A stretch of DNA of 7,851 nt from Candidatus Desantisiibacteriota bacterium (lineage in GTDB: Bacteria; JACRDZ01): positions 1 through 7,851 of the forward strand of contig JACQWU010000082.1 of NCBI GenBank assembly GCA_016209155.1, given 5' to 3'. This document shows, in pieces, positions 1 to 7,673 of this stretch (position 1 is the first letter of the stretch; the number at the start of each line of letters is the position of its first letter). The notes under the pieces were generated by a model, which was given only the letters and a program-made list of their open reading frames with translations, made no database searches and was not told the origin of the DNA. The translations under genes were made by a program, and so were the position numbers.

Positions 1-1659
1 AACTCCGCAGTATTTTTTTCTCCAATACGATCTGGAAAGTGGTTTAAGTTTCAAAAGGGAATGTTTATCTGCAATTTTTGAAACAGCATGTATTGCTTTA
101 TCTCGTATATGATAGTTCTCTGATTTATCAAATGTAACATCCATTAATAATTCTTGAAGCTCTTTAAGTTCACAAGCTCCGGCAATATCAATTGCAACAC
201 GCCTTACTAAAAAATGTTTTGCTTTATCCTGTATATATGGTTTTAATTGTACTGTTAATTCCGTATGCTTTAATTTATAATATTGTGAACTAAGTCCCCA
301 ATCCGAATCAGCTATTTTCATTTGTTCAAATTGTTTTAGCAGTGAATCAACTAAGTCCTTACGAAATCTATTTTCAATATCTCCTGATAATAATGATTGT
401 GGATCAGTGGTTATTATTTCTTCTATTATTTCAGGAACCATTGAATTTAACCATGAAGCTATTTGTTTCATCTGTGGAATAATCATTTGTTCAGGATCAT
501 TTGATATCTGAATTAATGATTTGATTTGCTGAATACTTAGTTTATGCAATGAAATATATCGCGCAGCTAAAAACTCAGTATAGGATTGATGCATAAAGCC
601 AAAACGATTTGGTCCTCTGCCTGAAAATAAGGCTGTTTGTGTAATGGTTTCTCGTAAATCATTTTCTGTAAAATTAAAAGTATGTTCACCGGTTGTTTCT
701 TCCCCTTCCTGTAACATTGAAAGTGTTAAATATCGATGATGATTATTATCTGGGTCTGATTTTGTTAATATGGATGAATAATTACAGAATGTCATTAAAG
801 CCGCAATACGGGATGCCAAAGCAAGACGCCGTTGAGGGGATAATTTCCCGGACTGTTTTGCTTCCATTCTTTCTTGATTGTTTTCGGTACATAAATATTC
901 ACATCCACGATGATATATCTTAGCTTTTGAGTTTGAAAATTGATTCCCGCTTTTAAATTCTTCCAATAAAAAATTTAAGGTAATTGGATTACTTGCTAAT
1001 GATTGTAAATCATTGTCTATTATATTTTTAATAAAACTATCCGGATTTAATTTGCTAATCTTTGCAGCTTCATAAACATCTTTTTTAAGAAGAGGTGTCA
1101 GTTCATAAATACCAACATTTTGTTCATCCCATATATAAGTTAAAGTATTTGTCAATGATTCCGGCCAATCACCTGTTCGGCAAGTAATACGTAAACTAAT
1201 ACGATTTTTATGCTCTTGAATTTTCTGAAATTGATTACTTAGTATAATTGCCGACTTAGGAATTTCTAAAAGACATTCATCTAAACTATCAAGAAATAAA
1301 TATAAATGATGCTGGCCATTTAACCAATTAATCATTTCCGGGGATTTAAATATATCATCTATTAATCTATTCTCGTCACCATATTCATTAAAATTTTTAT
1401 AATAAAGAACATCTGAAGAGTTTTTAATTTTATAAGAAAGAGTTTCTTTCTCTGAATTCAATGAAGTGGTTTTTCCTGATCCGGGTTCACCAAGTAATAT
1501 TAAACAAGGTGTTTTTTGAATTTTTTCAAAAGATACAACCCCATCGTTATAGTATTGAGCATCCTCTGACTCCGGATCAATCAAAAATCCATTATCATCT
1601 AAACTCATTGAACCGCCACGTGTACACCAAAATCGCTTCCATGGGAAAATGTTTTTCAT
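1..1659 (-). CDS. NACHT-type STAND NTPase with HEAT-like C-terminal repeats (C-terminus beyond the window)
   Basis: The frame is open for 553 codons from ATG (complement of 1657-1659) to base 1, so the C-terminus is missing. An N-terminal WKRFWC...GGSMSLDDNGFL segment (residues 7-26) precedes a P-loop NTPase: Walker A GEPGSGKTT (57-65), Walker B LFLDSLDE (121-128, D124 with the NACHT-style extra acidic residues D127/E128), a sensor-like RITCRTGDW (158-165), LASNPITL (221-228) and a closing FGFMHQSYTEFLAARY (353-368), typical of the winged-helix end of NACHT modules. Residues from about 470 (RRVAIDIAGACELKELQELL; IRDKAIHAVSKIAD) look like HEAT-type helical repeats, which in STAND proteins are usually the sensing arm. 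Start choice: AAAAGGG lies 6 nt before this ATG; an ATG two codons upstream directly abuts that site. Family knowledge: bacterial NACHT proteins are ATP-driven signalling switches, several shown to be anti-phage. Defence is inferred here. No effector domain is visible at the N-terminus, so its mode of killing or signalling is unknown. Confidence 0.88.
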   Translation of the reverse strand, partial: MKNIFPWKRFWCTRGGSMSLDDNGFLIDPESEDAQYYNDGVVSFEKIQKTPCLILLGEPGSGKTTSLNSEKETLSYKIKNSSDVLYYKNFNEYGDENRLIDDIFKSPEMINWLNGQHHLYLFLDSLDECLLEIPKSAIILSNQFQKIQEHKNRISLRITCRTGDWPESLTNTLTYIWDEQNVGIYELTPLLKKDVYEAAKISKLNPDSFIKNIIDNDLQSLASNPITLNFLLEEFKSGNQFSNSKAKIYHRGCEYLCTENNQERMEAKQSGKLSPQRRLALASRIAALMTFCNYSSILTKSDPDNNHHRYLTLSMLQEGEETTGEHTFNFTENDLRETITQTALFSGRGPNRFGFMHQSYTEFLAARYISLHKLSIQQIKSLIQISNDPEQMIIPQMKQIASWLNSMVPEIIEEIITTDPQSLLSGDIENRFRKDLVDSLLKQFEQMKIADSDWGLSSQYYKLKHTELTVQLKPYIQDKAKHFLVRRVAIDIAGACELKELQELLMDVTFDKSENYHIRDKAIHAVSKIADKHSLLKLKPLSRSYWRKKYCGV

Positions 1660-1729
1660 CAACATCCCTTTTAAAAAATACTTTTCTTAGTTTAATTAAT
1701 TTTTAGTGTTTTATTAAAATATTAGAAAT

Positions 1730-3101: not shown

Positions 3102-3120
3102 AAGGAGGAATTATCAAGTG
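3102..3120 (+). promoter_or_regulatory. topA: Ribosome binding site deciding the topA GTG start
   Basis: AAGGAGG (3102-3108) is a near-perfect Shine-Dalgarno sequence 9 nt before GTG at 3118-3120. The protein then begins MKDKSLLIVESPAKSK, exactly where TopA proteins normally begin. The frame is open upstream to about 3025, but that extension is not TopA-like and lies across the promoter. Confidence 0.85.
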
Positions 3121-5234
3121 AAAGATAAGTCATTATTGATTGTTGAGTCGCCTGCTAAATCTAAAACTATTAATAAAATTTTAGGTTCGAATTTTATAGT
3201 TAAAGCTTCTATGGGGCATATAAAAGATCTTCCTGCAAAAAAAATAGGTGTAAATGTAGCTGATAATTTTAAACCCGATTATGTTTTTATCAAAGGCAGA
3301 AAAGACCTTGTGAAAGATATTAAAAAAGCCGCTGAATCGGTTAAAAATATATATCTTGCTCCTGATCCGGATAGAGAAGGGGAAATGATATGCTGGCATC
3401 TTAAAGAAGAGCTTGAAGATAAAAATAAAAGTATATATAGAGTAATGTTCAATGAAATTACGGAAAAAGCTGTTAGAGAAGCCATTCAGCATCCAACTGA
3501 AGTCGATATTAAAAAAGTTAATGCTCAGCAGGCAAGACGGATACTGGATCGTCTCGTAGGCTATATGATAAGTCCCTTACTATGGAAAAAAGTCCGAAAG
3601 GGATTAAGTGCGGGAAGAGTTCAATCTGTAGCGGTAAGGCTAATATGTGAAAGAGAAAAAGAGATAGAAAGTTTTATTCCTGAGGAATACTGGGAATTGA
3701 CAGCAGATCTGGAGACATTAAAAAAAGAACAATTTACCGCAAAACTTGATAAAAAAGATAATCAAAAAATAAAAGTAACCAATAGTGAAGAAAGCGCGGC
3801 GATATTAAAAGATCTGGAGGGAGCCGCTTATTCGGTAAGTAATTTAGAGAAAAAGAAGAAAAAACGTTCTCCAAATCCGCCTTTTATTACAAGCAAGCTT
3901 CAGCAGGAAGCTGTACGTAAATTAGGTTTTACCCCGAAGAAAACCATGATGATAGCTCAGCAGTTATATGAAGGATTAACAATCGGAGGAAAAGGAACTC
4001 TTGGTTTGATCACATATATGCGTACTGATTCTACAAGAGTTGCGGTTGAAGCTATACAAAGCGTGAGAGAATATATAGAAAAAAAATACGGGAATGAGTA
4101 TCTTCCTGAAAAACCTAATTATTATAAAAACAGCAAAATGGCACAGGAAGCCCATGAAGCAATTCGTCCGACAGCAATGGATTTGGAACCGGAATCAATA
4201 AAAGAGTATCTGACACCGGATCAATATAAACTTTTTAGTCTTATATGGAAAAGGTTTATATCAAGTCAAATGAAACCCGCAGTATATGATATTACGGTAG
4301 CTGAAATTTTAGCCGCTAATTATACTTTTGTTGCAGTAGGTTCTATGATAGTTGAAAAGGGTTTTACTGCTGTTTATGATGAGAGTAAGGAAGATAATAA
4401 TAACGGGGCAGGGAATAAAAACGGAGAGGTTTCGCATGACATAGATAATCTTTTACCGCCTCTTCAAGTGGGGGATAAATTGATATTAATAAAATTAGAT
4501 CCTTCTCAGCATTTTACCAAGCCGCCGGCACGATATAATGAAGCTACAATAGTTAAGGCTATGGAAGAAAGAGGCATCGGCAGACCGAGGAGAATAAATT
4601 GGATGAAATAGAAGAAGGCGGTACGGACAAAGATATTGTTTTAAAGGAGTTCTATGACGGTTTTGCCCGTACACTGGAAAATGCAAAAACAAATATGCGC
4701 AATATAAAAAAAGAAATGGAAGTTGAAACAGATATTGTGTGCGAAAATTGCGGAAAAAAGATGATTGTCCGCTGGGGACGCCATGGTAAATTTCTTGCGT
4801 GTCCTGGTTTCCCTGAATGTAAAAATACCAAACCTTTAAAAGATGACAAAGATGGTTCTGAACCTGCTGTAAAAGTTGAACTTACAGGAGAAAAGTGCAG
4901 CGCATGCGGCGGAGATATGGTAGTAAAGCACGGCCGTTATGGTAAATTTTTATCATGCAGTAATTACCCTAAATGCAAAACAATAAAATCTTTTACTCTC
5001 GATATAAATTGTCCTAACGAAGGATGCAGCGGTAAAGTTACCGAGAAAAGAGGCAAAAAAGGCAGATTTTTTTATGGATGCAGCAATTATCCTAACTGTA
5101 ATTTTGTATCGTGGTATAAACCTGTTAATGAACCCTGCCCTGAATGCGGGAGCAGGTATCTGGTTTTTAAACAGACCAAAAAAGGGACCTTTTACAAGTG
5201 CCCAAATAAAGATTGTAAATACGTGAAGGAGTAA
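3118..5234 (+). pseudogene. topA: DNA topoisomerase I gene, interrupted by an internal deletion and frame change near 4588
   Basis: Bacterial TopA relaxes negative supercoils by cutting one strand through a tyrosine. The 5' part (3118-4611, 497 residues) has the TOPRIM domain with VESPAKSKT (E10), the DPDREGE triad (D83, D85, E87), SAGRVQSVAVRL, and the active site ITYMRTDST with catalytic Y300 and R302. It reads normally to RYNEATIVKAMEERGIGRP (ending at P490, 4587), then RRINWMK and a TAG at 4609-4611. In the next frame, from 4590, ENKLDEIEEG and the rest of TopA continue to 5234. Compared with E. coli TopA as I recall it, about 50 residues between GIGRP and the MEN..LD segment are absent. 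The lost segment begins STYASII in the family and belongs to the DNA-binding core (domain IV). The lost length must be 3n+1 bases. Because topA is normally essential, a misassembly or a recent mutation should be suspected. The downstream trmFO is closely linked and intact. Confidence 0.85.
4599..5234 (+). CDS. C-terminal topoisomerase I fragment with four zinc ribbons, possible TTG start
   Basis: This is the 3' part of the interrupted topA. It encodes the end of the core (DEIEEGGTDKDIVLKEFYDG) and then four consecutive topoisomerase-type Cys4 zinc ribbons: C48/C51/C68/C74, C100/C103/C120/C126, C138/C143/C161/C167 and C180/C183/C201/C206 (numbered from the TTG). In TopA these bind single-stranded DNA and may contact RNA polymerase. 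GAGGAG (4587-4592) sits 6 nt before TTG at 4599-4601, and the upstream fragment stops at 4611, so ribosomes finishing it could restart here and make a 211-residue zinc-ribbon protein. That site may simply be the codons for two glutamates. Expression as a separate protein is speculative; the homology to the TopA tail is not. Confidence 0.6.
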   Translation: MDEIEEGGTDKDIVLKEFYDGFARTLENAKTNMRNIKKEMEVETDIVCENCGKKMIVRWGRHGKFLACPGFPECKNTKPLKDDKDGSEPAVKVELTGEKCSACGGDMVVKHGRYGKFLSCSNYPKCKTIKSFTLDINCPNEGCSGKVTEKRGKKGRFFYGCSNYPNCNFVSWYKPVNEPCPECGSRYLVFKQTKKGTFYKCPNKDCKYVKE

Positions 5235-5240
5235 TCTCTA

Positions 5241-6563
5241 ATGAACCCTTCTATTACAATAATAGGAGGAGGACTTGCAGGATGTGAAGCCGCATGGCAG
5301 ATAGCTGAAAGAGGTATACCTGTAAAGTTGTATGAAATGAGGTCGGCTAAGACAACTTCTGCCCATACAACCGGTTATTTAGCCGAGCTTGTCTGCAGTA
5401 ATTCTCTGCGCTCCAATTCTATCTCAAACGCGGCCGGGCTTTTAAAAGAAGAAATGAGAGTTTTAGGTTCATTAATAATAAATACTGCCGATGAGACAAA
5501 AGTTCCCGCGGGGCTTGCTCTTGCGGTTGACAGAGTTGAATTTGCCGATAGAATAACAACAAAAATATCCGGTCATAAAAATATCAAAGTTATAAGAGAA
5601 GAAGTAATATCCATCCCTGACAATGAAATTGTGATCATCGCTACCGGTCCTATGACTTCGGAAGCTTTATCTGACGAAATAATAAAAATAACAGGTAATG
5701 AATATTTATATTTTTATGATGCGATTGCTCCGATAGTTGAATACGATTCATTAGAACATGATAAAATTTTCCGCGCATCGCGCTACAATAAAGAAAATAC
5801 CGCAGATTATTTAAACTGTCCGCTTACAAAAGAAGAATATTATAATTTTGTTGATGCCCTTATATCCGGAGAGAAATATCCTGTTAAGGATTTTGAAAAA
5901 GGAATTTTTTTTGAAGGATGCATGCCGATAGAACAAATGGCAGAACGCGGAAGAGATACTTTATTATTCGGGCCTATGAAACCTGTCGGGCTTGTTGATC
6001 CTCATACAGGGAAAATGCCGTTTGCAGTTGTACAACTGCGGCAGGATAATAAGATTGGTTCATTATATAATTTAGTAGGATTTCAGACACGTCTTTTGTG
6101 GAAAGAACAGGATCGTACATTCAGGATGATAAGCGGACTTCAAAATACAGAATTTATGCGGTATGGAAGCATGCACAGAAACACTTTTATTAATTCCCCC
6201 GGACTTTTGAAAAATACCAATCAGCTTAAAAATAATCCGGATATTTTTTTCGCAGGTCAGTTAACAGGTGTTGAAGGTTATGTGGAATCAACATCCTCAG
6301 GACTTATTACCGGTATAAATGCCGCAAATTATATAAGAGGTAAATCTGTCGTAAGTCCCCCTCCGGACACTGCATGCGGAGCATTATTATCGTATATATC
6401 CGATCCGAAAATCGATAAATTTCAGCCAATGAATATAAATTATGGTATAATATCCGTAATAGATTCAGTTAAACATATAAGAGACCGCAAAGAACGTTAT
6501 GCTAAAATAGCAGATAAAGCTTTAATTAATATTAAGGAGTGGAAAGAAAAATATTGCGAATAA
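5241..6563 (+). CDS. trmFO: TrmFO, folate/FAD-dependent tRNA (uracil-54-C5)-methyltransferase
   Basis: TrmFO makes 5-methyluridine (ribothymidine) at position 54 of the tRNA T-loop, using methylenetetrahydrofolate as carbon donor and reduced FAD. The 440 residues match the family length. Visible motifs are the N-terminal dinucleotide-binding IIGGGLAGCEAAW (7-19), the family signature AHTTGYLAELVCSNSLRSN (41-59) with C52, FFEGCMPIEQMAERGRDTL (224-242) with C227, GFQTRLLWKEQDRTFRMI and the C-terminal FAD-contacting GQLTGVEGYVES. C52 and C227 correspond to the two cysteines (C53 and C226) studied in the Bacillus subtilis enzyme. GAAGGAG (5225-5231), inside the last codons of topA, is a good ribosome binding site 9 nt before ATG 5241. 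The gap to topA is only 6 nt, so they are cotranscribed and probably translationally coupled; topA-trmFO pairing is common in bacteria. There is no sign of damage in this gene, unlike its neighbour. Confidence 0.96.
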   Translation: MNPSITIIGGGLAGCEAAWQIAERGIPVKLYEMRSAKTTSAHTTGYLAELVCSNSLRSNSISNAAGLLKEEMRVLGSLIINTADETKVPAGLALAVDRVEFADRITTKISGHKNIKVIREEVISIPDNEIVIIATGPMTSEALSDEIIKITGNEYLYFYDAIAPIVEYDSLEHDKIFRASRYNKENTADYLNCPLTKEEYYNFVDALISGEKYPVKDFEKGIFFEGCMPIEQMAERGRDTLLFGPMKPVGLVDPHTGKMPFAVVQLRQDNKIGSLYNLVGFQTRLLWKEQDRTFRMISGLQNTEFMRYGSMHRNTFINSPGLLKNTNQLKNNPDIFFAGQLTGVEGYVESTSSGLITGINAANYIRGKSVVSPPPDTACGALLSYISDPKIDKFQPMNINYGIISVIDSVKHIRDRKERYAKIADKALINIKEWKEKYCE

Positions 6564-6899: not shown

Positions 6900-7673
6900 T
6901 TAACTTTTTTTGAATTTTTTTCTTAACAAACCGCTTCCGATTAGTCCTGTTCCTAAAAGAATTAAAGATCCAGGTTCTGGTACCGGAGGTAATTCCTGAG
7001 TTCCAAAACCATCAAGAAATACCAATCCGCCATGTCCGCCTAATCCACAGTCTCTAACAAATAATTCAACTTTAACCTGATCCCCTGCGCCTAAACCTAA
7101 ATCATCCAGGTCAATAGAAGCAACCTGAGATTTATACCATATATCACCTTCATCACCTGATCCGTCATCAGTTCCGATTAAGGTAAAACCAGGTTCATCA
7201 GCTCTATGATCTGCATAATAAATGGAATTCCATGTACTGCCGTTATAGCTGGAAATGTTTAAGCTGAAGAAAGGCTGACTGCTTGGAGCATGAACAACCC
7301 CATTAGTTGGCTCCTCAAGAATTGCTCCCCATCTGAAATAAAGTACAGCACCTTCAGCAACATCCTGTGCAGTTATTGTACCTGTTTGAGTTGCTGTGCT
7401 ATTGTGAGCATTATCCCATACAGCGCCGACATCACCGCTTCCAAGAAGTAATGAGTAAGCACCATAATAAGGAATACCAGAAGTCCATCCGGATGTGTTG
7501 TTAAACTGAGGAGTAAATGAGCTTATTACACTGTAATCAACAGGAGAAGTATTTCCTGTTAATGTCCATCCAGTAGCATCGCCTGTTTCAAAACCTCCAT
7601 TTGTAAAAAGAGCATAAGTTGTAGATACGTTTAATAATAATACAGCGATTAATAGAACGAAAAGTTTTTTCAT
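6900..7673 (-). CDS. PEP-CTERM sorting-domain surface protein
   Basis: The 257-residue precursor has a signal peptide (residues 1-21, MKKLF then a leucine-rich core, likely cut after TYA). The mature part, rich in Gly, Ser, Thr and Asp, opens with NGGFETGDATGWTLTGN (25-41), a common start of PEP-CTERM proteins that often heads a beta-sandwich, carbohydrate-binding-like domain. The tail is PPVPEPGSLILLGTGLIGSG (229-248) followed by LLRKKFKKS: the PEP box (232-234), a transmembrane helix and a basic end. By family knowledge, an exosortase (EpsH/XrtA type) recognises this tail, and such proteins are tied to exopolysaccharide and biofilm matrix. No exosortase is in the window. The function of the mature domain is unknown; no catalytic motif is visible, and it has one cysteine in RDCGLGGHGG. 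The ATG is fixed by GGGAGGTG (complement of 7679-7686) and by the signal peptide. Base composition is visibly less AT-rich than the neighbouring spacers. Confidence 0.92.
   Translation of the reverse strand: MKKLFVLLIAVLLLNVSTTYALFTNGGFETGDATGWTLTGNTSPVDYSVISSFTPQFNNTSGWTSGIPYYGAYSLLLGSGDVGAVWDNAHNSTATQTGTITAQDVAEGAVLYFRWGAILEEPTNGVVHAPSSQPFFSLNISSYNGSTWNSIYYADHRADEPGFTLIGTDDGSGDEGDIWYKSQVASIDLDDLGLGAGDQVKVELFVRDCGLGGHGGLVFLDGFGTQELPPVPEPGSLILLGTGLIGSGLLRKKFKKS

What the first reader, a model, noticed from the sequence alone, without database searches (positions are those of the whole stretch)
4575..4620. topA lacks about 50 core residues and shifts frame at the GIGRP junction
The sequence reads as a normal topoisomerase I up to GIGRP (4573-4587), then continues in another frame with ENKLDEIEEG. 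The roughly 50 residues that every TopA I can recall has between these points (starting STYASII) are missing, and the loss is not a multiple of three. Everything else, including the catalytic Y300, the TOPRIM acids and four zinc ribbons, is intact, so the lesion is recent or artificial. A cell with this as its only type IA enzyme would be expected to be severely impaired. The junction lies in GAGGAG, so a deletion between short GAG-like repeats, or an assembly collapse, would fit.
Basis: partly seen in the sequence, partly recalled or inferred. Interest (0 to 1): 0.7.

Follow-up and report, generated by a model that had tools for sequence, protein, structure and literature searches.

The report
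Assembly error breaks a topoisomerase gene
An essential bacterial gene appears to have lost 154 bases, but other indispensable genes in the same draft genome (RNA polymerase, gyrase) carry the same kind of break, so this is almost certainly a faulty genome assembly and not a mutant organism.

Summary
Bacterial topA (start GTG 3118, catalytic Y300) reads normally to GIGRP (4573-4587). It then keeps two bases (AG) and continues in another frame from ENKLDEIEEG (4590) to the stop at 5234. Of 102 other loci with both ends matched, 95 have exactly 156 nt (52 residues, STYA...FTAxM) between these points and 6 have 159 nt. The window therefore lacks 154 nt (3n+1). The missing segment was not found elsewhere in the genome, although the same search finds it in 6 of 6 relatives.

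The interpretation as a biological lesion does not hold. The window is one whole 7.85-kb contig of a fragmented draft genome (352 contigs, 79% complete). The same class of break, a small frame-changing loss with intact coding sequence on both sides, occurs in rpoB (~32 nt), the gyrB tail (~82 nt), a polysaccharide-biosynthesis gene (~134 nt), mutL and rlmD. An exact 28-nt tandem duplication breaks nnrE/D. Three same-phylum relatives have unbroken rpoB and gyrB. A cell cannot live with broken rpoB and gyrB, so the shared cause is most likely local assembly or scaffolding error. Reads are needed for proof. Nothing new about topoisomerases follows.

The parts
3102..3108 (+). Shine-Dalgarno AAGGAGG of topA
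   Evidence: sequence
3118..4587 (+). topA 5' piece: TOPRIM, catalytic Y300 (TAT 4015-4017), up to GIGRP
   Evidence: TIGR01051 positions 1-491 E=3.5e-194; PF01751 and PF01131
4587..4592 (+). junction GAGGAG; AG (4588-4589) is left between the two pieces; 154 nt (52 codons less the 2 nt kept) are missing here
   Evidence: the frame-switch HMM places the switch at 4587
4590..5234 (+). topA 3' piece in frame 3: end of the core plus C4 zinc ribbons, intact
   Evidence: TIGR01051 positions 544-631, four Zn_ribbon_Top1 stretches
5241..6563 (+). trmFO (GidA family), intact neighbour downstream
   Evidence: PF01134 2-390/391

Best explanation
The break is a local assembly error in a fragmented draft genome: two pieces of topA were joined without 154 bases that lie between them in the organism. 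The real gene is expected to be an ordinary, intact bacterial topA of about 760 codons. Shown: the missing length, its absence from the rest of the assembly, and the same lesion class in several other core genes. Inferred: that the DNA molecules themselves are intact, because reads are not available.
For: (1) The window is the whole contig C292 (7851 bp) of a 352-contig, 78.8% complete assembly. (2) The same kind of break is found in rpoB: one frame to VTPKGE, then another frame from RAIFGEKAGD, ~32 nt short, while three same-phylum genomes each have one open frame. (3) The gyrB tail reads NPEN, then PRREFIETYAHAVRDLDI in another frame, 27 residues (82 nt) short, while three relatives are complete. 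(4) A polysaccharide-biosynthesis gene (PF02719, profile 82 then 126, ~134 nt short), mutL (NF000951 419 then 489) and rlmD (TIGR00479 176 then 212) are broken likewise. (5) An exact 28-nt tandem duplication breaks nnrE/D, the opposite kind of join error. (6) Scaffold gaps of variable N length (8-106) occur 15 times in 377 kb, one inside gyrB, against 3 in 821 kb of other loci. (7) Both flanks in topA are undecayed. (8) Local assembly errors and unmerged overlaps at scaffold joins are described for metagenome assemblies (PMC7111523).
Against: No reads could be mapped and no second assembly of the species was at hand (the genus holds only this genome). valS and carB are intact, so not every gene is hit. 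The crude count of frame switches without a start codon is not clearly above a control genome (7 in 334 kb coding against 2 in 187 kb); the argument rests on the homology-confirmed cases. Other assembly problems do not prove that this particular join is wrong.
Confidence: 0.92

Rival explanations
1. A real, recent 154-bp deletion in the sampled cell or strain, perhaps between short repeats, tolerated through compensation by gyrase mutations or topo IV amplification, as in E. coli topA nulls.
For: Clean junction, no decay on either side; E. coli topA nulls survive with compensatory changes (PMC3313902 and PMC7140829).
Against: The same assembly also has broken rpoB and gyrB; RNA polymerase beta and gyrase B have no known bypass. 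A single cause for all of them is simpler.
Confidence: 0.05
2. A genome in decay (a degrading symbiont) in which many core genes are pseudogenes.
For: Many broken genes.
Against: The broken genes include rpoB and gyrB, without which no cell lives; apart from the break each gene is well conserved; the genome is 3.1 Mb with normal coding density (334 of 377 kb).
Confidence: 0.01
3. A functional variant: a truncated 497-residue TopA, or one with recoding at the junction, that does without the 52-residue segment.
For: Both pieces are open and conserved.
Against: All 101 other TopA loci measured in full have the segment, with invariant STYA, R, Y, P and G. It maps to E. coli TopA about residues 495-546, just after R493 and including R507 (from the alignment to 4rul). 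Recoding cannot supply missing DNA.
Confidence: 0.01
4. The missing piece lies elsewhere in the genome, as a split or trans-spliced gene.
For: None.
Against: A profile of the segment finds it in 6 of 6 relatives and nowhere in G000; there is no intron-like sequence at the junction, where the two pieces abut.
Confidence: 0.01

Closest known systems
Bacterial DNA topoisomerase I, TopA (TIGR01051; E. coli 4rul, T. maritima 2gai)
   Same: TOPRIM, catalytic tyrosine, core domains up to GIGRP and the zinc-ribbon tail all match, in the usual order and next to trmFO
   Different: 52 core residues (E. coli ~495-546) and the reading frame are lost at one point in this assembly
Local assembly / scaffolding errors in metagenome-assembled genomes (PMC7111523)
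   Same: small losses, unmerged duplicate ends and N gaps of estimated length inside genes, many per genome
   Different: read support, the direct test, could not be examined here

Membership tests
Bacterial topA (TIGR01051) | score over the curated cut-off | tested here: met
   5' piece alone 647 bits against a cut-off of 456
Bacterial topA (TIGR01051) | TOPRIM domain and catalytic Tyr in the core | tested here: met
   PF01751 E=7e-19, PF01131 E=2.7e-101; Y300 at 4015-4017 in TYMRTDS
Bacterial topA (TIGR01051) | one continuous open frame with profile positions 492-543 | tested here: not met
   profile 491 then 544 in different frames; 154 nt missing against 101 other loci
Local assembly error | same lesion class in unrelated indispensable genes of the same assembly but not in relatives | tested here: met
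   rpoB and gyrB broken in G000 and intact in G001-G003; capD-like, mutL and rlmD shown broken against profiles only
Local assembly error | junction not supported by reads | not testable with these tools
   no reads available
Biological pseudogene | organism can live with the set of broken genes | tested here: not met
   rpoB and gyrB are among the broken genes; their essentiality is established knowledge

The most novel reading that the evidence does not exclude
A living bacterium whose only type IA topoisomerase gene carries a real 154-bp core deletion and that survives by compensation through gyrase or topo IV.
Probability: 0.04. Interest if true: 0.5.

Novelty: not a real feature. Interest (0 to 1): 0.06.

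Why it matters
It matters mainly as a warning. This draft genome stands as the only representative of its genus in the held collection, and it breaks core genes such as topA, rpoB, gyrB and mutL at many places. Gene-loss, pseudogene or split-gene claims from it should not be made without reads.

Tried and rejected
Looked for the missing segment elsewhere in the genome with one relative's sequence (empty, no positive control) and then with an 11-row profile plus six positive controls (absent in G000 only). Looked for a second type IA enzyme with PF01131: none, but the genome is 79% complete. Looked for another genome of the genus: none held. Tested whether N gaps are always too short, which would put the topA join on the same line: the gyrB gap (19 N) looks about right in length, so no single bias in gap size was found. 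Tested for an excess of exact tandem duplications: one convincing case (nnrE/D), no clear genome-wide excess. A literature search for R493/R507 of TopA found nothing in the held library. Recoding and intron explanations were rejected because DNA is missing, not added.

Full report
What is there. topA begins at GTG 3118 behind AAGGAGG and reads normally through the TOPRIM domain, the catalytic Y300 and GIGRP (4573-4587). Two bases (AG) follow, then the gene resumes in another frame at ENKLDEIEEG (4590) and runs to the stop at 5234 with four intact zinc ribbons. In TIGR01051 the two pieces cover positions 1-491 and 544-631. I measured the distance between the two points in the related loci fetched: 95 have exactly 156 nt, six have 159, one gave 45 through an alignment end effect, and the window has 2. 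So 154 nt, 3n+1, are missing. The AG fits the start of a Ser codon AGY, the first codon of STYA.

What the lost part would be. Its invariant residues across 11 relatives include STYA, an Arg, a Tyr, a Pro and a Gly. In the alignment of a relative to E. coli TopA (4rul) it corresponds to about residues 495-546, right after R493 and including R507 (residue numbering counted by me from the alignment). A protein without it, and ending in RRINWMK*, would not be expected to work. All full-length relatives measured have it, so this is not a known variant.

Is it elsewhere? A profile of the segment finds it in 6 of 6 relatives at E of about 1e-26 or better and not at all in the window's own assembly. 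No second type IA topoisomerase was found there (PF01131, one match). The assembly has 352 contigs, 3.08 Mb, 78.8% complete, and the window is one entire contig of 7851 bp. The genus has no other genome in the collection, so no direct comparison with a sister assembly was possible.

Is topA special? No. I took 40 contigs of the assembly (369 kb) and ran a simple frame-switch HMM. It recovers the topA junction at 4587 and shows further genes that change frame in mid-sequence. Homology confirms several. A CapD-like polysaccharide-biosynthesis protein goes from profile position 82 to 126, ~134 nt short. mutL goes from 419 to 489 of NF000951, and rlmD from 176 to 212 of TIGR00479; the sizes of these two are rough. 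The gyrB tail goes from NPEN straight to PRREFIETYAHAVRDLDI in another frame, 27 residues (82 nt) short. An exact 28-nt tandem duplication breaks nnrE/D. I then tried long core genes chosen without regard to the survey: rpoB is broken (VTPKGE, then RAIFGEKAGD in another frame, about 32 nt short) while three same-phylum genomes have it in one frame; rpoC is split over two contigs; valS and carB are intact; dnaE is almost wholly absent. gyrB is complete in the three relatives.

What follows. RNA polymerase beta and gyrase B cannot be dispensed with (established knowledge), so at least those breaks must be artefacts, and topA has the same anatomy: intact coding sequence on both sides, a clean junction, a frame-changing loss of tens to hundreds of bases. 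The assembly also contains scaffold gaps of variable estimated length (15 N runs in 377 kb, against 3 in 821 kb of other loci), one of them in gyrB. Local assembly errors, and overlaps left unmerged at scaffold joins, are described for metagenome assemblies, and the authors suspect one assembler in particular (PMC7111523). I cannot tell which assembler was used here. The likeliest account is therefore a misjoin in assembly or scaffolding; the real gene is expected to be whole.

Limits. No reads were available, so the artefact is inferred from the company it keeps. The raw count of frame switches without a start codon is not clearly higher than in a control genome (7 in 334 kb against 2 in 187 kb), so the case rests on the confirmed genes. 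A real deletion with compensation is not excluded: E. coli topA nulls need compensatory mutations to grow (PMC3313902, PMC7140829). I give it about 5%.

Noticed in passing
L156 (G000:C276) about 2755-2785: rpoB of the same assembly is broken: VTPKGE to RAIFGEKAGD with about 32 nt missing and a change of frame; three relatives are intact.
   Followed up: yes
L150 (G000:C38) 5756-5774 and about 6458: gyrB holds a 19-N scaffold gap and an 82-nt loss in its tail, just before gyrA.
   Followed up: yes
L148 (G000:C36) 7009-8280 minus strand: ispD reads in one open frame into the start of rlmD, and rlmD changes frame further on; probably two more misjoins and not a fusion protein.
   Followed up: partly
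L152 (G000:C40) 6209 and about 15140: ddl lacks its N-terminal part (profile begins near position 38), and pstC runs into pstA with no start codon for pstA; possible further misjoins.
   Followed up: partly
L113 (G000:C1) 7324-7380: Exact 28-nt tandem duplication that shifts the frame of nnrE/D, like an overlap left unmerged at a join.
   Followed up: partly
window 1-1665, minus strand: Large P-loop ATPase-like protein, cut by the contig end; GEPGSGKTT motif, only a weak Nephrocystin-3-type match (E=3.5e-05, below cut-off). Looks NACHT/STAND-like; not tested against defence models.
   Followed up: no
window 6900-7673, minus strand: Secreted protein with a C-terminal PEP-CTERM sorting motif (PF07589).
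   Followed up: no
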